A DNA stretch of 40,329 nucleotides from an uncultured Roseburia sp. (GTDB lineage Bacteria; Bacillota; Clostridia; Lachnospirales; Lachnospiraceae). Position numbers and translations under genes: made by a program. The notes under the pieces were generated by a model. It was not told the origin of the DNA and did no database searches. It was given only the letters and a program-made list of their open reading frames with translations. Positions 32,314 through 39,344 of this stretch are shown here, piece after piece. Within the stretch, counting starts at the first letter, position 1. Each line of letters starts with the position of its first letter. The stretch spans positions 1-40,329 of the forward strand of contig CAMUHN010000026.1 of the NCBI GenBank assembly GCA_947088675.1, written 5' to 3'.

Positions 32314-33168
32314 ATGGGTATGCTTCCTGGCGGTACGGGAACCGGCGTCAGAACATATACCGTGATGAACCGCAATGGTACGGTTGCCGGTACACTAAGT
32401 GTCTCAACATCGAAAAAGAAAAAGAGCGGCGAGACGAAGCAGCGGTTGAATTATAATTTTAAATCAGTTTCATCGATGATCCTGCGTGCAAAAACGTCGG
32501 GCAGCGCAAGTCAGGCTGTGATTAAGGCGAGAGGGAAATTAGCCAATCTCCGACGCAAACTGCACACAGACAAGTATGACGACAGAGAGCTTGAAAATGC
32601 AATTACCCATGCAGCCAAAATGGTCCGGATTGCAAAAAAACGGGTGAATCACCTGAAAGAGGAGGAGGAATCCGATAAAAAAGGCGTAGATATTCCGAAT
32701 GAGGAAGAGACAGAGCAGGAGAGTGAGGTAGAAAACCTGCTGGCTGATCCCGAAATGGGCGGGGAAGAAATGGAACAAAAGATCAAAGAATGCATGAGTG
32801 AACTTCAGAATCAGATGCGCGAGCTGTTGAAAGAGATTGACAGGGACGGCTGGATGGAAGAACTGTCCGGAGAAATTATAGCGGATACAGGCGATTTGTC
32901 CCCACAGGAACGCGAAAATTTAAGAAAACGGCACAGGGCCGCTGAAATGCGCGATATTATCAAAGCGGATATGGAGTATCTGAAAGCAAAGTTTCAGCAG
33001 CTGGCAAGAGAAAAGGAAGAAGCACAAAACGCAAATGCGAGTTTTGGCGGGAATAGTACGGAGACTGTTACCGGGGTTACGCTGGAACTTGGCGGAGTCG
33101 GAATGCCGGTTTCCCCGCCTGAAATACCTGTTCCGGCAGAAGGCGCAAACGTGGATGCATCGCTTTAG
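32314..33168 (+). CDS. Coiled-coil protein of unknown function
   Basis: A 284-residue soluble protein. Residues 1-55 are Gly/Thr/Ser-rich and then basic (SVSTSKKKKSGETKQRLNYN). Residues 60-115 look helical with many Arg and Lys (ILRAKTSGSASQAVIKARGK, THAAKMVRIAKKRVNHLKEE). Residues 115-235 are strongly acidic-basic and should form long coiled coils. The tail is Gly/Pro-rich. I do not recognise a named family. It is transcribed from a SigD-like promoter and followed 18 bases later by the EAL fusion gene, so a motility or signalling role is the working guess. Confidence 0.75.
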   Translation: MGMLPGGTGTGVRTYTVMNRNGTVAGTLSVSTSKKKKSGETKQRLNYNFKSVSSMILRAKTSGSASQAVIKARGKLANLRRKLHTDKYDDRELENAITHAAKMVRIAKKRVNHLKEEEESDKKGVDIPNEEETEQESEVENLLADPEMGGEEMEQKIKECMSELQNQMRELLKEIDRDGWMEELSGEIIADTGDLSPQERENLRKRHRAAEMRDIIKADMEYLKAKFQQLAREKEEAQNANASFGGNSTETVTGVTLELGGVGMPVSPPEIPVPAEGANVDASL

Positions 33169-33186
33169 CAATTGTATGGGGGATTT

Positions 33187-34935
33187 ATGACGCATAAAGA
33201 AAAGGCAGACCAGCTTCTGCACCAGCAGTATCATTGTTCGCAGGCAGTATTTGGCGCGTTTGCGGATGATTTTGATTTGGATTTAAAGACAGTATTTAAA
33301 ATCAGCACCTGCTTTGGCGCCGGAATGCGTCAGGGCGGAATCTGCGGTTGTATCACAGCGTCTTTGCTGGTACTTGGCATGGCGATCGGGTTTTATGATG
33401 CGCAGGACAGAGAACAGGAAGTGTACGGCAACAAAAAGACGGAGGAATTTATCCGCAGATTTACGGAACAGATGGGAGGGGACATAAACTGCCGCGATAT
33501 TCTGGGGAAAGATATTTCCGTTCCGGCGGATATGGCCCTGATTCGCAAAGAAGGGCTGATTTTAAAGAGGTGTCCGAGAGCAGTCAATTCCTGCATTGAA
33601 ATACTGGAGGATATGCTGTCCGATATTTTAAAGGATATGGCGGAGAGCAGTATCGACCCGGAGGATATTCCCGAAAATGACGAGATGCAGAGTATTTTAA
33701 AGAGCATTGGAAAATTAAAACGTTTTCGCAGAAATGTCAATAACCTGTTGCTGTCGTCGGAAAAAGAAATCGGGTTTATCCAGTTTGATATACGCAAGTT
33801 TAAGATTGTCAATGATCTTTACGGTGAAAAATTCGGAGACGAAATACTGGATTTTGTGAAAAAGCAGATTAAAGAATGCTGTGTAGAGGGTCAGTATTAT
33901 ATTAATTTGCGCAGTGATGTATTTATGGTTGTCACAGAATTTGAATATGAGGGTGAGCTGGTAGCATTTATACAGAGGCTGGACGCAAGGATTGCGAGCT
34001 ACAAGAATGTAAAGCTCCAGATGTCTTACGGCGTCTATACAGTGGAGGACCGGCAGATGGAGCTGCGGCAGATGGAAGATCGGGCGGCAATGGCAAGAAA
34101 GGCTGCCAAAAATAATGTCGTGTCCAATATTCTTTTTTATAAGGAACAGTTTAAAGAATCTCTGTATAACCGCAAATTTATTGAGGAAAACATGCAGGCT
34201 GCGATTACAGAGCGCCAGTTTATGATGTATCTCCAGCCGAAATACAGCATTGCAAAGAACGAGATTATCGGCGCGGAAGCGCTTGTCAGATGGCGTCACC
34301 CGCAGCGGGGCATGATTTATCCGGATCAGTTTATTCCGGTTATTGAGGAGAATGGATTTATTCAAAAGGTCGACTATTATATCTGGGAGGAGGCCTGCCG
34401 CTTTATTCGAAGATGCAAAGAAGCCGGTATCGCTTTCTGTCCTGTTTCTGTCAATGTTTCGCGCGTTCATCTGCGTGACAATGAATGTATTCACGTTCTT
34501 TCGGACATGCTGAAAAGAAACGGCATTCCAAAAGGGATGTTGGAACTTGAGATTACAGAGACGGCGGATGACCAGCAGATCAGTTTCAAGGCGCTTCAAT
34601 TAAAAGAAGAAGGATTTACGCTTTTGATGGACGATTTCGGGAGCGGCTATTCATCGCTTAATATTTTATTGGAAACTCCGTTTGACGTCATTAAACTGGA
34701 TAAAAAATTCATGGAAAATATGATGGTTTCCGGTAAGGGCAGGCTGATTTTGGAACAGGTGGTCTCCATGGCGAACAAGCTGGAGCTTGGCCTTTTGGCG
34801 GAGGGCGTTGAGACAAAGGAACAGGTGGAACTGTTACAGAGCATCGGCTGTGATCAGGTACAGGGTTACTATTATGCGAAGCCGATGCCGCAGGAAGAGT
34901 TTTTTGAACTTTTAAAGCAGCAGTATGGGAAATAA
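33187..34935 (+). CDS. C_GCAxxG_C_C domain - degenerate GGDEF - EAL fusion
   Basis: A 582-residue three-part protein. Residues 5-140 resemble the C_GCAxxG_C_C family (HCSQAVFGAF, KISTCFGAGMRQGGICGCIT, with later Cys in INCRDIL and RCPRAVNSC), which may bind a metal or act in redox chemistry. Residues about 185-315 have a GGDEF-like fold (IGFIQFDIRKFKIVNDLYGEKFG), but the active motif reads RSDVF (242-246), so it should not make c-di-GMP. Residues about 330-580 are an EAL domain with EAL at 364, SVNVSRVHL, LELEITET, MDDFGSGYSSL, KLDKKF and AEGVET, all expected for an active c-di-GMP phosphodiesterase. ATG at 33187 follows ggggg by 4 bases. No membrane segment is seen. Confidence 0.88.
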   Translation: MTHKEKADQLLHQQYHCSQAVFGAFADDFDLDLKTVFKISTCFGAGMRQGGICGCITASLLVLGMAIGFYDAQDREQEVYGNKKTEEFIRRFTEQMGGDINCRDILGKDISVPADMALIRKEGLILKRCPRAVNSCIEILEDMLSDILKDMAESSIDPEDIPENDEMQSILKSIGKLKRFRRNVNNLLLSSEKEIGFIQFDIRKFKIVNDLYGEKFGDEILDFVKKQIKECCVEGQYYINLRSDVFMVVTEFEYEGELVAFIQRLDARIASYKNVKLQMSYGVYTVEDRQMELRQMEDRAAMARKAAKNNVVSNILFYKEQFKESLYNRKFIEENMQAAITERQFMMYLQPKYSIAKNEIIGAEALVRWRHPQRGMIYPDQFIPVIEENGFIQKVDYYIWEEACRFIRRCKEAGIAFCPVSVNVSRVHLRDNECIHVLSDMLKRNGIPKGMLELEITETADDQQISFKALQLKEEGFTLLMDDFGSGYSSLNILLETPFDVIKLDKKFMENMMVSGKGRLILEQVVSMANKLELGLLAEGVETKEQVELLQSIGCDQVQGYYYAKPMPQEEFFELLKQQYGK

Positions 34936-34938
34936 ACG

Positions 34939-35607
34939 ATGAAGATCATGATTGTGGAAGATGATGTGACACTTGCAAAAGAAATTGCGGCGTTTCTTGT
35001 AAAATGGGGCTATGAGACGGTGACGGCTTCTGATTTTACCGATATTTTGGATTTATATTTAAAAGAATCGCCGCAGTTGATCCTGTTGGATGTGAATCTG
35101 CCGTATTACGACGGATTTTACTGGTGCGGCCGTATACGGGAGGTCTCAAAAGTTCCGGTTATTTTTATCAGCAGCAGGGACGATGACCGCGATCAGATTA
35201 TGGGAATTGCACAGGGGGCCGATGATTATGTCGGCAAACCGTTTCATCTGGAAATGTTAAAGGCAAAAATTGACGCCATTTTAAGAAGAACTTATCAATA
35301 TAAAATAAAAGAACAGATCTGTCTGGAGCACGGACTTTCTTTTGACGTCGTCTCCCAGATCCTGTTTTGCGGCGGAAAGGAAGTCGAACTGACCAGGTCA
35401 GAGCGGAAAATCTTTGCGAAGCTGCTGGAAAACCGACCGGATGTTGTGTTTCGCGATACGCTTATGATGGATCTGTGGAATACGAACGAGTATGTCTCGG
35501 ACGGTACGTTAACAACGGTGATCAGCCGCATGAGGAGCAAACTGAAAGCTGCCTGCGGGGATGAGGTTGTGAATACGAAGAAAGGGCAGGGCTATTTTAT
35601 CAAATGA
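34939..35607 (+). CDS. BceR-like response regulator
   Basis: A 222-residue OmpR-type response regulator. The receiver has the acidic pair VEDD, the phosphorylated Asp at 51 (LLDVNLP), Ser in ISSRDD and Lys in GKPFHLEML. The carboxyl winged helix carries LTRSERKIFAKLLENR and TVISRMRSKL. Such regulators control ABC transporters for bacitracin or lantibiotic resistance. The start is only 3 bases after the stop of the EAL fusion gene, so translation is probably coupled to it. It overlaps the kinase by 4 bases. Its likely target motifs are at 36585-36631. Confidence 0.92.
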   Translation: MKIMIVEDDVTLAKEIAAFLVKWGYETVTASDFTDILDLYLKESPQLILLDVNLPYYDGFYWCGRIREVSKVPVIFISSRDDDRDQIMGIAQGADDYVGKPFHLEMLKAKIDAILRRTYQYKIKEQICLEHGLSFDVVSQILFCGGKEVELTRSERKIFAKLLENRPDVVFRDTLMMDLWNTNEYVSDGTLTTVISRMRSKLKAACGDEVVNTKKGQGYFIK

Positions 35608-36593
35608 AATATCTGAAAAGACGGTGGAAATATTTTTTTCTGTATTTGATACTGTTTTTTTCGTTTAATCTCTATTTTATCTTTCTGATGCGCACATCGC
35701 ATCTTTTCTGGCTTCTTTATCTGGACGGACTCCTGATCATGCTGCTTTTTACTGCAGGCGTATGGGATTATCTTTCTTTTCGGCGGATGCAAAAAGAAGT
35801 GAATCTGCTGAAAGAACGGGGCATGGTTCTCTGCCAGACGCTTGAAAGAGATTTTGAAAACAAAGACATTGCTGAACATGACGTTCAGGTATTAAATGAA
35901 AAACTCTCGGCGGCTTTTGAAGAAAATTGCGAATTGTCTGATTTTGTGGCAAAATGGTGCCATGAGTTTAAAATACCGCTTGCCGCAGGACTTTTGATTG
36001 TGGAGAAAATTGAGAATGGCGAGGTAAGAGACGCTATGCGGGAGCAGCTGGAAAAAATGAACCGTCAGTTAAATTCCGTTCTGCTTGGCGCGAAACTGAC
36101 CAGTTCGCTGCTGGATGTCAAAATCAGACGCGTATCGCTGCAGGAATGCGTGCAGGCGTCGATCCGTAATTACCGTTTTTTTCTGATTCAGAAGAATTTT
36201 TCGCTTCATCTGGAACAAATGACTCTGTATGTCTATTCTGATTTTTCGTGGCTGGTCTATATTATAGATCAGCTTATCAGCAATGCCGTCAAATATGCAG
36301 GCCGTGATCCGATCCTTTCGATTTGGCCGGTGCAGCGGGATGGTCAGACAGAACTGTGGATCGAGGATAACGGAGACGGGATCAGGAGAGAGGATTTAAG
36401 CCGCATTTTTGAAAAAGGGTATGTCGGCAGCAATTATCACAACGGCTCCTACAAATCAACCGGCATGGGTTTGTATCTTGTGTCAAAGATTATTTCAAGA
36501 TTGGGACATCAGATTTCGGTTGAAAGCGAATATGGCGCGTTTACCAGATTTTGTATTTTGTTTTCGGTATCATCCGCGGTTACATTACAATAA
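35604..36593 (+). CDS. BceS-like sensor histidine kinase
   Basis: A 329-residue intramembrane-sensing kinase. Two membrane segments at about residues 9-30 and 36-55 are joined by a very short loop, so it has no sensor domain and should take its signal from the BceAB transporter. The phosphorylated His is residue 120 in WCHEFKIPLAA. The ATPase part has N-box QLISNAVKYAG, G1 IEDNGDGI and G2 STGMGLYLVSKI. Start and stop overlap neighbours tightly. The stop codon lies inside the 15-base palindrome that begins the BceA promoter region. Confidence 0.92.
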   Translation: MKYLKRRWKYFFLYLILFFSFNLYFIFLMRTSHLFWLLYLDGLLIMLLFTAGVWDYLSFRRMQKEVNLLKERGMVLCQTLERDFENKDIAEHDVQVLNEKLSAAFEENCELSDFVAKWCHEFKIPLAAGLLIVEKIENGEVRDAMREQLEKMNRQLNSVLLGAKLTSSLLDVKIRRVSLQECVQASIRNYRFFLIQKNFSLHLEQMTLYVYSDFSWLVYIIDQLISNAVKYAGRDPILSIWPVQRDGQTELWIEDNGDGIRREDLSRIFEKGYVGSNYHNGSYKSTGMGLYLVSKIISRLGHQISVESEYGAFTRFCILFSVSSAVTLQ

Positions 36594-36658
36594 TTGTAAG
36601 ATTTCGCGATGTTTTGTAAGCGCAATGTAAGGATTTTTTCTGCTTCCTGCCGTACAAT
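36585..36658 (+). promoter_or_regulatory. BceR-type operator array and promoter of the transporter genes
   Basis: TTACA-ATAAT-TGTAA (36585-36599) is a perfect inverted repeat. TGTAAG occurs three times, at 36595, 36615 and 36626. TACAAT (36653-36658) is a good -10 box with a poor -35 (AGGATT, 36630-36635, 17-base spacing), as expected of an activator-dependent promoter. BceR-like regulators bind TNACA/TGTAA inverted repeats, so the transporter is probably induced by the adjacent system. Confidence 0.7.
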
Positions 36659-36687
36659 ATCAGAAAAAGAAAGGCATGGAGGTAACT

Positions 36688-37455
36688 ATGAACGAAAACA
36701 AAGTAGCTGAAGTAAAAAATCTGATTAAAAATTATGGGACCAGGGATTTTACGGCAACGGTATTAAAGGGGATTGACCTTACGATCTGCTGTAATGATTT
36801 TATCGCGGTGATGGGGCCGTCCGGTTCCGGAAAAACAACGCTCTTAAATATTTTGTCTACGATTGACAAACCGACGCATGGATCCGTGATGCTGGACGGG
36901 CATGATATTACAAAGATTTCCAATCAGGATCTCTCAAAATTACGGAGAGATAAGATCGGCCTGATCTTTCAGGATTACAATCTGCTGGATACAATGACGC
37001 TGCAGGATAATATTGCTCTTCCGCTTTCCTTAAACGGTGTTGCCAGCCGTGTGTGTATGCAGAAAACGGAAGAACTTGCCGGATTGTTCGGACTTTCCGA
37101 CCATCTGAAAAAATATCCCTATCAGCTGTCCGGCGGGCAGAAGCAGCGCGGTGCGGCATGCCGCGCGCTTATCACGGACCCGCAGATTATTTTTGCCGAT
37201 GAACCGACCGGGGCGCTTGATTCCAGGTCGGGCAAAGAACTGATGAGATGTTTAAAAGAAGTAAATGACAGCGGACGCGCCGCGATTTTTATGGTGACGC
37301 ACGATCCGTACTGCGCGTCTTATGCAAAGGACGTTTACATTTTAAGCGACGGGATGATGAAGTGCCGGTTGAGCAGGGGAAGCGGGCGCAAAGAATTTTT
37401 TGACCGCATTATGGATGCGCAGATTTCTATGGGAGGTGATTTCTCATGCGACTGA
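36688..37455 (+). CDS. BceA-like ABC transporter ATP-binding protein
   Basis: A 255-residue MacB/BceA-type ATPase that pairs with the permease overlapping it by 10 bases. Walker A is GPSGSGKTTLL, the Q-loop LIFQDYNLLD, the signature LSGGQKQRGAACRAL, Walker B IIFADEPTGALD and the switch His in MVTHDP. The pair most likely removes peptide antibiotics from lipid II cycle targets and signals through the kinase. ATG at 36688 follows ggaggt by 5 bases; an in-frame ATG 12 bases earlier lies in that site. Confidence 0.94.
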   Translation: MNENKVAEVKNLIKNYGTRDFTATVLKGIDLTICCNDFIAVMGPSGSGKTTLLNILSTIDKPTHGSVMLDGHDITKISNQDLSKLRRDKIGLIFQDYNLLDTMTLQDNIALPLSLNGVASRVCMQKTEELAGLFGLSDHLKKYPYQLSGGQKQRGAACRALITDPQIIFADEPTGALDSRSGKELMRCLKEVNDSGRAAIFMVTHDPYCASYAKDVYILSDGMMKCRLSRGSGRKEFFDRIMDAQISMGGDFSCD

Positions 37456-39344
37456 TGCAGCTTGCGTTTTTAAATTTTAAGAACAATCTGAAAAATTACC
37501 TGTCCCTGGTGCTGTCGCTGTCGTTTACGATTCTGATTTTTTTTAATTTTCAGAATATTATTTATTCGGATTCGTTTGAGGTGCTTGGCACGCAGAACAA
37601 AGACTACATTGATATCATTGTCAGAGTGATTTCTTTTGTACTTGGTTGTTTTATGTTCTTTTTTCTGTGGTATTCCACCAACGTTTTTTTGACGAAACGG
37701 AAGAAAGAGATCGGCATCTATGTGTTTATGGGACTGACGAATCAGAAAATCGGTAAGATGTATATGATCGAGACATCGCTGATCGGAATTACCGCCTTTG
37801 TTCTCGGGATTTTTTCCGGCATTGCTACAGCGGCTTTGTTTCAGATGATATTGCTTGCTGTCTCGGACATCGCGGTGGAGATTCGCTTTCAGGTGAGGAT
37901 AGAACCGGTATTCATTACGGCGGTGGTTTATCTGGCGATGTACCTGATTTTTGTGATAAAAGGGTATTGCAATATTGTAAAGAGCAGCGTTCTTTCCATG
38001 ATTTCCGCTTCAAGGCAGAATGAGTATGTCAGGCAGAGTACGCCGGTTTTACTGCTTAAGGCAGCGCTTGGCGCCTGCATTCTTGGCGGCGGGTACTATC
38101 TGGCTGTGAAAGAAGGCGGGCAGGAGGTAATGGGGAATGTTATGGCTGCCGTTGTGCTTGTGACGGCAGGCGTCTATTTGCTGTTTGGAGGCCTGATTCC
38201 GTATGTGTTCCAGTCTGTCGCGAGGAATAAGAAAATTCTTTACCGTGGACAGCGCAATCTCTGGGTCAACAGTATGATTTTTCGTATGAAGAAAAATTAC
38301 CGCACCTATGCGATTGTATGTGTGCTGACTCTTTGTTCTGTTACGGCGCTTGCGACCGGTTTTGCGATGAAGATACGCCATGACAATATGGTGCAGTTTG
38401 AGAATACGTATACGTTTCAGTTCTTAAGCGACCAGCCGGATATTGGGAATCAGGCACAGCCGCTGATTGAAAAATACAGCGAAATCTCATACCGTTCTGA
38501 TATACCGGTTCTTTTTCTGGACAATGTAAATGTAAGTAACAGATCTTTTGCCGGGTCTTATGCGGTTGTTCCGTATTCCGGGGTAATGCGGCTGGCAGAA
38601 CAGGTCGGGCTTTCCTTTGAACTTAAGGAGCCTGGGATGGACGAGGTGATTGAAGCCGGTCATCTGTACCTGTTATCTCTGCTCACAGACCGTTCGGACA
38701 TTACGGTGACGATCAACGGAAAAGAATACAGGCAGATACAGGAAACAAGCGAACCTTATCTTGGGTATCTTCAGGAGCAGGCAGGCTATTACATTGTAAA
38801 TGATGCAGAATTTGAAGCAATGCAGCCGTTCGGGCAAAGCCTCTATACCAGTAATTTTAAAATCAGCGATGCCGATATGTTTGAGGCAGTGCGGGATGAA
38901 TTAAATGTTCTGAGCAGCAATACGGAAGAAAACTATACGGCCCGTGTTGCAGTTGATCCAAAGAGCAACGATACCGACTGGGTGAAAGTGTTTTATACAC
39001 TGTGTATCTTTTTGTTTCTGGTCTTCATTCTGGCCAGTGGGAGTATCATGTTTATGAAACTGTATAACGATTCCTTTGAGGAGAGGCCGCGGGCGCTTGT
39101 CATGAAAAAGATCGGTATCGACAGCGGAACGCTTGGCAGGTCGATCGCAGCGGAGCTTGGCATGGCGTACATTCTGCCGTTTGCGGTGATGACGGTTTCC
39201 TCGTATTTCTCGGTACATGCGCTTGAAAAAATGATGCATACCAGTCTGTTTTCCGTACGGATTGTGAGCGTGCTTATTGTGTTTGCGATTTTCTTTTTCT
39301 TTTACCTGATATCGGTTGCGGCTTATCGTAAAAATGTTTGCTGA
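37446..39344 (+). CDS. BceB-like FtsX-type permease
   Basis: A 632-residue permease with the ten-helix BceB layout: a pair of helices near residues 18-75, FLTKRKKEIGIYVFMGLTNQKIG as the cytoplasmic FtsX coupling loop, and further helices to about residue 300. It then has a large extracellular domain of roughly 200 residues (about 305-510) and the last three helices. The extracellular domain is the part that defines the peptide antibiotic specificity in this group; its sequence does not tell me which peptide. ATG at 37446 follows gggaggt by 8 bases. No terminator is seen directly after it. Confidence 0.9.
   Translation: MRLMQLAFLNFKNNLKNYLSLVLSLSFTILIFFNFQNIIYSDSFEVLGTQNKDYIDIIVRVISFVLGCFMFFFLWYSTNVFLTKRKKEIGIYVFMGLTNQKIGKMYMIETSLIGITAFVLGIFSGIATAALFQMILLAVSDIAVEIRFQVRIEPVFITAVVYLAMYLIFVIKGYCNIVKSSVLSMISASRQNEYVRQSTPVLLLKAALGACILGGGYYLAVKEGGQEVMGNVMAAVVLVTAGVYLLFGGLIPYVFQSVARNKKILYRGQRNLWVNSMIFRMKKNYRTYAIVCVLTLCSVTALATGFAMKIRHDNMVQFENTYTFQFLSDQPDIGNQAQPLIEKYSEISYRSDIPVLFLDNVNVSNRSFAGSYAVVPYSGVMRLAEQVGLSFELKEPGMDEVIEAGHLYLLSLLTDRSDITVTINGKEYRQIQETSEPYLGYLQEQAGYYIVNDAEFEAMQPFGQSLYTSNFKISDADMFEAVRDELNVLSSNTEENYTARVAVDPKSNDTDWVKVFYTLCIFLFLVFILASGSIMFMKLYNDSFEERPRALVMKKIGIDSGTLGRSIAAELGMAYILPFAVMTVSSYFSVHALEKMMHTSLFSVRIVSVLIVFAIFFFFYLISVAAYRKNVC

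What the first reader, a model, noticed from the sequence alone, without database searches (positions are those of the whole stretch)
33187..34935. Cys-domain - dead GGDEF - live EAL fusion: possible redox-gated c-di-GMP phosphodiesterase
The sequence shows a C_GCAxxG_C_C-like amino domain with at least six Cys joined to a GGDEF domain whose active motif is RSDVF and an EAL domain keeping EAL, EITE, DDFG, KLDK and EGVET. C_GCAxxG_C_C proteins normally stand alone and are thought to handle metals or redox chemistry. I do not know a described c-di-GMP enzyme with this sensor. The inference is that Cys oxidation or metal binding controls c-di-GMP breakdown in an anaerobe.
Basis: partly seen in the sequence, partly recalled or inferred. 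Interest (0 to 1): 0.72.

Follow-up and report, generated by a model that had tools for sequence, protein, structure and literature searches.

The report
Cysteine-domain c-di-GMP phosphodiesterase family
A bacterial gene joins a cysteine-rich, possibly redox- or metal-responsive domain to an enzyme domain that should break down the signal molecule c-di-GMP, and the same fusion is conserved in dozens of related bacteria, so it looks like a real but still untested sensor.

Summary
Observation confirmed. Window 33187-34935 (+) is one 582-aa ORF: C_GCAxxG_C_C domain, degenerate GGDEF (RSDVF), intact EAL. Of 52 loci found in other genomes, 48 carry it full length; all 49 aligned proteins have the three domains. 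dN/dS against the nearest relative is 0.03.

The Cys domain is a specialised form. Besides the four family Cys it always has C42 and C55: C55 in 61 of 61 fused-type rows and 0 of 58 others, C42 in 61 of 61 and 19 of 58. The fused-type rows form one clade, support 100/100. EAL catalytic positions are invariant in 49 of 49; the GGDEF glutamate is Val.

Most likely a cytoplasmic c-di-GMP phosphodiesterase gated by a Cys-ligated metal/Fe-S site or a thiol switch. A weak homology of stand-alone relatives to split-Soret cytochrome c is a lead for Fe-S. Gating, cofactor and activity are untested; no structure prediction ran to completion. No C_GCAxxG c-di-GMP enzyme appeared in the open-licence papers searched. 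New variant of a known kind.

The parts
33187..34935 (+). C_GCAxxG_C_C - degenerate GGDEF - EAL fusion gene, 582 aa, ATG start
   Evidence: single ORF; three Pfam domains over cut-off; all three domains in 49 of 49 aligned proteins
33178..33182 (+). GGGGG, ribosome-binding-like, 4 nt before the ATG
   Evidence: read from sequence; role inferred
33229..33615 (+). C_GCAxxG_C_C domain, residues 15-143
   Evidence: PF09719 E 1.3e-24; TIGR01909 4.3e-18
33232..33237 (+). H16-C17; C17 is one of the four family Cys
   Evidence: both 49 of 49; H16 in 61 of 61 fused-type and 13 of 58 other rows, C17 in 61 of 61 and 58 of 58
33310..33312 (+). C42, extra Cys
   Evidence: 61 of 61 fused-type, 19 of 58 others
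33343..33351 (+). C53-G54-C55: family Cys C53 and fusion-specific C55
   Evidence: C53 in 61 of 61 and 58 of 58; C55 in 61 of 61 and 0 of 58
33490..33492 (+). C102, family Cys
   Evidence: 49 of 49; in the wider set 60 of 61 (one gap) and 58 of 58
33571..33573 (+). C129, family Cys
   Evidence: 49 of 49; in the wider set 59 of 61 (two gaps) and 49 of 58 (nine gaps)
33637..33723 (+). variable linker, residues 151-179
   Evidence: residues 151-180 have mean pairwise distance 0.56 against 0.25 for residues 1-150 (48 rows)
33724..34116 (+). degenerate GGDEF domain, residues 180-310
   Evidence: PF00990 E 1.3e-13
33910..33924 (+). RSDVF in place of GGDEF; catalytic Glu is V245
   Evidence: R 47, S 47, D 49, V 49, F 49 of 49
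34186..34884 (+). EAL phosphodiesterase domain, residues 334-566
   Evidence: PF00563 E 8e-64; E364, N423, E455, E458, D482, D483, K503, E539, E542, Q559 invariant in 49 of 49

Best explanation
A soluble cytoplasmic c-di-GMP phosphodiesterase whose EAL domain is controlled, through a catalytically dead GGDEF connector, by an N-terminal Cys-rich sensor. The four family Cys (C17, C53, C102, C129) with the extra C42, C55 and perhaps H16 form one site, most likely holding a metal or Fe-S cluster that responds to oxidant or intracellular reducing state; the change passes through the linker and GGDEF to the EAL dimer and sets the rate of c-di-GMP breakdown. Shown by sequence: the fusion, its conservation and single clade, the EAL residues, the dead GGDEF and the six invariant Cys. 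Inferred: EAL activity (about 0.85), the N domain as an input (about 0.65), a metal or Fe-S site rather than bare thiols (about 0.5; Fe-S alone about 0.35), cytoplasmic location and dimer control. The direction of control is unknown. The genome has 4 flagellin-type, 17 GGDEF (the window's included) and 4 PilZ matches, so motility is a plausible output.
For: Three domains in 49 of 49. EAL catalytic positions invariant in 49 of 49, aligned along a solved GGDEF-EAL 'motility regulator' 4rnh, E 8.9e-60. Six Cys invariant; C55 exclusive to the fused-type rows, which form one clade at 100/100. dN/dS against L024 is 0.03 for the gene and 0.026 for the Cys domain. Cys-domain and EAL distances correlate, r 0.79, 0 of 2000 permutations as high (48 rows), so the parts evolved as a unit. 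In 14 of 17 GGDEF-EAL relatives the BLAST match begins at residue 163 or later, so another N-terminal part stands there. Fe-S lead: a profile of six C_GCAxxG rows finds split-Soret cytochrome c 1h21, whole-sequence E 8.4e-5; 4 of those 6 rows match the split-Soret model NF047622 at 0.001 or better, best 1.4e-7. One paper's table calls a C_GCAxxG member putative FeS cluster-binding (PMC8322314, passage). Redox lead: selenoprotein members are listed (PMC13188914, PMC9312934, passages).
Against: No structure was obtained, so it is not shown that the six Cys come together. The fused N domain itself has no credible PDB match by sequence and none of 44 matches NF047622. The 1h21 link rests on six rows that I picked; its best single stretch has only i-Evalue 0.011, the 27-row profile gave 0.13 behind an unrelated hit at 0.046, a single sequence gave 0.038 behind an unrelated 0.0043, and the NF047622 score is far below its cut-off (31 against 400 bits). 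That split-Soret cytochrome c carries a non-haem iron centre is recalled; I saw only the title, and the paper was not held. No gene neighbour is widely conserved. L073 keeps the EAL but lacks residues 97-276, odd if the sensor were essential, though it may be a misassembly. A disulfide switch has little to do in an anaerobe's cytoplasm without oxidant exposure.
Confidence: 0.55

Rival explanations
1. A metal-free thiol switch: pairs among the six Cys form disulfides or other thiol adducts during oxidant or reactive-sulfur exposure and turn the phosphodiesterase up or down, functionally like the disulfide control of PdeC.
For: Family named redox-active; selenoprotein members are listed (passages), and Sec usually replaces redox Cys (recalled). 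A cysteine synthase - C_GCAxxG fusion exists. PdeC is a described disulfide-controlled EAL enzyme (PMC8846402, passages).
Against: Six invariant Cys plus invariant H16 are more than one disulfide needs; stand-alone relatives have a weak link to an iron-containing cytochrome (the iron centre is recalled); PdeC is controlled in the periplasm, whereas this protein shows no two-helix membrane anchor.
Confidence: 0.22
2. A soft-metal or metalloid sensor: zinc, copper, mercury or arsenic binding to the Cys set, not redox, controls c-di-GMP breakdown.
For: Six Cys and a His in one small domain. A MarR+GNAT+C_GCAxxG frame and two GNAT frames would fit toxic-compound responses. A zinc-binding CZB domain is a known input of some diguanylate cyclases (passage).
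Against: No neighbour family occurs in more than 7 of 52 loci, so no metal-resistance gene is conserved beside it; the window's FeoB ends about 16 kb away.
Confidence: 0.13
3. Reversed flow: a trigger-type enzyme in which EAL binding and cleavage of c-di-GMP switch an electron-transfer or redox activity of the Cys domain.
For: Trigger phosphodiesterases are described (PMC5052742, title and start of abstract in the listing). The Cys domain is about as conserved as the EAL domain: mean pairwise distance 0.25 and 0.23.
Against: The N-terminal position is the usual sensor place, and most relatives carry another part there. No electron-transfer partner is conserved nearby.
Confidence: 0.1

Closest known systems
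RmcA of Pseudomonas aeruginosa (FAD-PAS - GGDEF - EAL)
   Same: redox cofactor domain before GGDEF-EAL; phosphodiesterase output; GTP on the GGDEF domain activates the EAL domain (PMC12540587, passages)
   Different: flavin on PAS, membrane protein with four PAS domains; here a C_GCAxxG Cys domain and no PAS match
PdeC and other CSS-motif EAL enzymes of Escherichia coli
   Same: Cys-based control of an EAL phosphodiesterase (PMC8846402, passages)
   Different: two-Cys periplasmic loop between two membrane helices; here six Cys in a domain without such helices, and a GGDEF domain between
Bhr-HD-GYP of Ferrovum sp.
   Same: iron-site redox control of c-di-GMP hydrolysis (PMC9388753, passages)
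   Different: hemerythrin di-iron sensor and HD-GYP output
Stand-alone C_GCAxxG_C_C proteins (PF09719 / TIGR01909)
   Same: the N domain passes both cut-offs and keeps the four family Cys
   Different: fused to GGDEF-EAL, extra C42 and C55, CGCITA instead of CGAxxG
MorA-type GGDEF-EAL 'motility regulator' (4rnh; the name MorA is recalled)
   Same: best solved match to the catalytic part, E 8.9e-60
   Different: keeps a GGDEF motif at the aligned site; the match covers residues 198-575 only, not the Cys domain
Split-Soret cytochrome c (1h21)
   Same: weak profile match of C_GCAxxG relatives around the CGA motif
   Different: a haem protein; the fused protein has no CxxCH motif and no direct match to it

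Membership tests
C_GCAxxG_C_C (PF09719 / TIGR01909) | score over the curated cut-off | tested here: met
   86.9 against 27 bits; 65.5 against 47.4 bits
C_GCAxxG_C_C (PF09719 / TIGR01909) | four conserved Cys | tested here: met
   C17, C53, C102, C129 in 49 of 49
C_GCAxxG_C_C (PF09719 / TIGR01909) | literal CGAxxG motif | tested here: not met
   reads CGCITA; the Ala is Cys in 61 of 61 fused-type rows
EAL c-di-GMP phosphodiesterase | catalytic and metal residues and DDFG loop | tested here: met
   ten positions invariant in 49 of 49 and the same in 17 of 17 relatives; residue roles recalled
EAL c-di-GMP phosphodiesterase | hydrolyses c-di-GMP | not testable with these tools
   needs an enzyme assay
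GGDEF diguanylate cyclase | GGDEF/GGEEF active motif with catalytic Glu | tested here: not met
   RSDVF; V245 in 49 of 49
GGDEF as GTP-binding connector (RmcA-like) | residues on the GTP-binding side kept | tested here: inconclusive
   D201, K206, N209, D210 in 49 of 49, D218 in 40 of 49; roles recalled; GTP binding not measured
CSS-motif EAL enzymes (PdeC) | two membrane helices flanking a two-Cys periplasmic loop | tested here: not met
   one hydrophobic stretch, residues 47-73 over the C53-C55 motif (best 19-residue mean 2.07); no window outside it above 1.17; simple hydropathy only
Split-Soret cytochrome c | haem-binding CxxCH motif and direct family match | tested here: not met
   no CxxCH; NF047622 not among the matches of 44 fused N domains
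Fe-S cluster protein | bound cluster | not testable with these tools
   needs purified protein; only an indirect homology lead

The most novel reading that the evidence does not exclude
The founding family of Fe-S-gated EAL phosphodiesterases: a six-Cys (plus His) C_GCAxxG site, remodelled by adding C55 to a C42-bearing ancestor around the time of fusion, holds an oxidant-labile cluster in anaerobic Lachnospiraceae and relatives and couples cytoplasmic redox or oxygen exposure directly to c-di-GMP breakdown. It would also make a function of this widespread, uncharacterised domain directly testable.
Probability: 0.33. Interest if true: 0.75.

Novelty: new variant of a known kind. Interest (0 to 1): 0.52.

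Why it matters
In the parts of a census of c-di-GMP sensors that I read, the oxygen and redox inputs are haem PAS, globin, hemerythrin, flavin PAS and disulfide control, with a zinc-binding CZB domain beside them (PMC8846402, passages). A conserved C_GCAxxG-EAL family would add a new input domain, in bacteria whose c-di-GMP control is little written about: only one paper of the library holds c-di-GMP, Lachnospiraceae and EAL domain together, a review on acetylation (listing). The PF09719 domain is common (246 of 398 genomes sampled in the phylum) but uncharacterised in the passages seen; fused to an enzyme, its chemistry gets an assay.

Tried and rejected
Frameshift or two genes: rejected, one frame in the window, full length in 48 of 52 loci. 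Assembly chimera: rejected, many separate genome records. Operon function: the gene lies 18 bases after an unknown ORF and 3 bases before a response regulator, histidine kinase and ABC transporter, but that order recurs only in L024, and apart from the gene and reverse-strand shadows of it no ORF family occurs in more than 7 of 52 loci, so it was not used. Upstream ORF on the opposite strand in 24 of 50 loci classified (crude, nearest ORF of 100 aa). Riboswitches: none in the window at gathering scores; the genome search for c-di-GMP-I rang in no control and says nothing. Viral contigs: 12 pattern matches, none a relative. Plasmids: 2 records, annotated as C-GCAxxG-C-C proteins. Phages: 2 unannotated records at 30-31% identity, not examined further. 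Gene lists around six stand-alone sister genes were looked at by eye without a family search and suggested no common function. The long frame of L078 looked by eye like a stop-to-stop reading of non-coding sequence, and one other long frame ran through undetermined bases. My first sample suggested that C42 too is nearly unique to the fusion (2 of 32 rows, window included); the family sample showed it in 19 of 58 other rows. L151 looked like a further fusion, but Pfam found only PF09719.

Full report
What is there. Window 33187-34935 (+) encodes one 582-aa protein. Pfam finds PF09719 at 15-143, GGDEF at 180-310 and EAL at 334-566, all over their cut-offs; NCBIfam TIGR01909 agrees for the Cys domain. 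The nearest relative, L024 (96% identical, same gene order), is recorded as an uncultured Roseburia, so the host is probably a Lachnospiraceae member (inferred).

Is the fusion real? A search of genome contigs with the N-terminal 158 residues gave 52 loci. 48 of 52 align from residue 5 or earlier to 560 or later in one frame. The other four are L059 and L063, cut by contig ends, L074, which matches only residues 1-112 near a contig end, and L073, which lacks residues 97-276 in frame. I aligned 49 proteins: the window, L005 and 47 of the 48 (L056 left out for undetermined letters; L057, kept, has a few). All 49 match the three Pfam families. An ATG stands at the same place in the window and all 52 loci. 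Titles are mostly Lachnospiraceae or genera of it, with some labelled Oscillospiraceae, Ruminococcus, Eubacterium or only Clostridia; most are metagenome-assembled, L072 and L073 carry strain names. N-domain matches over 250 bits occur in 5 of 62 genomes of the genus (one, G032, has an in-frame stop), 10 of 397 of the family and 5 of 295 of the order, plus one genome with the domain split over two contigs. Each count includes the window's genome, and the samples overlap each other. The family is patchy.

Selection and unity. Against L024 dN/dS is 0.030 for the gene, 0.026 for the Cys domain, 0.049 for linker and GGDEF and 0.016 for the EAL part. Two other pairs give 0.013 and 0.019 for the Cys domain (0.069 and 0.041 for the rest); a closer pair, L064/L066 with dS 0.15, gives 0.20 for the Cys domain and 0.037 for the rest. 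Pairwise distances of Cys and EAL domains correlate at r 0.79, 0 of 2000 permutations as high, in 48 rows.

The Cys domain. C17, C42, C53, C55, C102 and C129 are invariant in 49 of 49; C136 is not. In a wider set of 119 N domains (61 fused-type, 58 others) C17 and C53 are in all; C102 is in 60 of 61 and 58 of 58; C129 in 59 of 61 and 49 of 58, the rest being gaps. C42 is in 61 of 61 and 19 of 58; C55 in 61 of 61 and 0 of 58; a neighbouring Cys, C56, in 0 of 61 and 12 of 58; H16 in 61 of 61 and 13 of 58. The 19 C42 rows all lie among the 20 rows nearest the fused clade in the tree, the 12 C56 rows within them. Rows with undetermined letters, identical sequences or short matches were dropped. 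Rows were called fused by score (over 180 bits) to the fused profile, not by checking the EAL in each; L006, L059, L063, L073 and L074 are incomplete or broken members. The tree puts the 61 on one side of a branch at 100/100; it warns of few columns, long branches and an unsettled bootstrap, and its root is for drawing only. A C42-bearing stand-alone domain was probably fused once and C55 came with or near the fusion; this order is inferred.

The catalytic part. E364, N423, E455, E458, D482, D483, K503, E539, E542 and Q559 are invariant in 49 of 49 and the same in 17 of 17 GGDEF-EAL relatives; the EAL part aligns along solved 4rnh. Their roles are recalled from characterised EAL enzymes. The GGDEF motif is RSDVF with V245 in 49 of 49, so cyclase activity is not expected; D201, K206, N209 and D210 are invariant, so nucleotide binding is possible. 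RmcA, whose GGDEF-bound GTP activates its EAL, is a precedent (PMC12540587, passages). Degenerate motifs such as SADVF, NADVF and EADIF are usual among the 17 relatives; 16 lack the glutamate at the aligned place.

What the Cys domain might do. Passages of all 8 papers that hold GCAxxG were read. They name it as putative redox-active (several), once as putative FeS cluster-binding, as acetone-induced, as up under syngas, in an iron-stimulon table, in selenoprotein lists, in a cytochrome table and as weak matches in rhomboids; none of these passages mentions c-di-GMP. By sequence the fused N domain finds nothing credible in the PDB. A 27-row profile finds 1h21 split-Soret cytochrome c at E 0.13, behind an unrelated 0.046. 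A profile of six stand-alone rows, chosen because they looked most like it, finds it at whole-sequence E 8.4e-5, best single stretch 0.011. 4 of these 6 rows match NF047622, best 1.4e-7, far under its cut-off. A single sequence gives 0.038 behind an unrelated 0.0043. The fused profile aligns with the six-row profile at 97.3%, as expected within one family; none of 44 fused N domains matches NF047622. That split-Soret cytochrome c has a non-haem iron centre is recalled; I saw only a title in a reference list. This is a lead, not proof.

Other fusions qualify the remark that the domain stands alone: cysteine synthase (L150), GNAT (L147, L148), NUDIX (L149), MarR plus GNAT (L120) and a DUF402 frame (L133). 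Among the rows listed for phylum, family and order I saw no second kind of signalling fusion, but those lists were capped at about 150 rows and not every long frame was examined.

Context. No neighbour is widely conserved. The genome holds 17 GGDEF, 4 PilZ and 4 flagellin matches, so control of motility is plausible.

Novelty. C_GCAxxG_C_C with EAL gave 0 papers; GCAxxG and PF09719 gave 8 and 2. The census PMC8846402 was seen as passages and section 20; the domain is not named there, and that paper is not among the 8 holding GCAxxG; its supplementary tables could not be read. The library holds only open-licence PubMed Central papers, so work elsewhere would be missed. The finding is best called a new variant of a known kind: a sensor-GGDEF-EAL phosphodiesterase with an undescribed sensor. 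Gating remains an inference, and no structure could be predicted here.

Noticed in passing
L150:641-2140 (+): Cysteine synthase A joined to a C-terminal C_GCAxxG_C_C domain in one 500-aa open frame; suggests a sulfur or thiol link for the domain.
   Followed up: partly
L120:571-1926 (+): MarR-type regulator with a CCCC run, GNAT acetyltransferase and C_GCAxxG_C_C domain in one 452-aa open frame.
   Followed up: partly
L147:658-1656 (+), L148:609-1637 (+), L149:503-1663 (-), L133:706-1959 (+): C_GCAxxG_C_C in one open frame with GNAT (two), NUDIX and DUF402.
   Followed up: partly
L073:6001-7149 (+): In strain 1xD42-87 the fused gene lacks residues 97-276 in frame (two Cys and the GGDEF domain gone, EAL kept): natural deletion or misassembly.
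   Followed up: partly
L006, minus strand: A relative at about 64% identity has a longer linker and one in-frame stop near the start of its EAL part; a broken copy or a sequence error. Intact copies exist in other genomes.
   Followed up: no
L122-L128, L130, L133, L138, L140, L141: Twelve non-fused C_GCAxxG rows carry C42 and a Cys at position 56, one place after the fused family's C55: a possibly shifted ligand.
   Followed up: partly
window 34939-39344 (+): Response regulator, histidine kinase (best NCBIfam model SapS, under its cut-off), ABC ATPase and FtsX-type permease follow the fused gene by 3 bases; the same order was seen only in L024.
   Followed up: partly
window 32314-33168 (+): 284-aa ORF 18 bases upstream without any Pfam family over cut-off; weak NCBIfam matches to PspA and SMC suggest coiled coil.
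   Followed up: no
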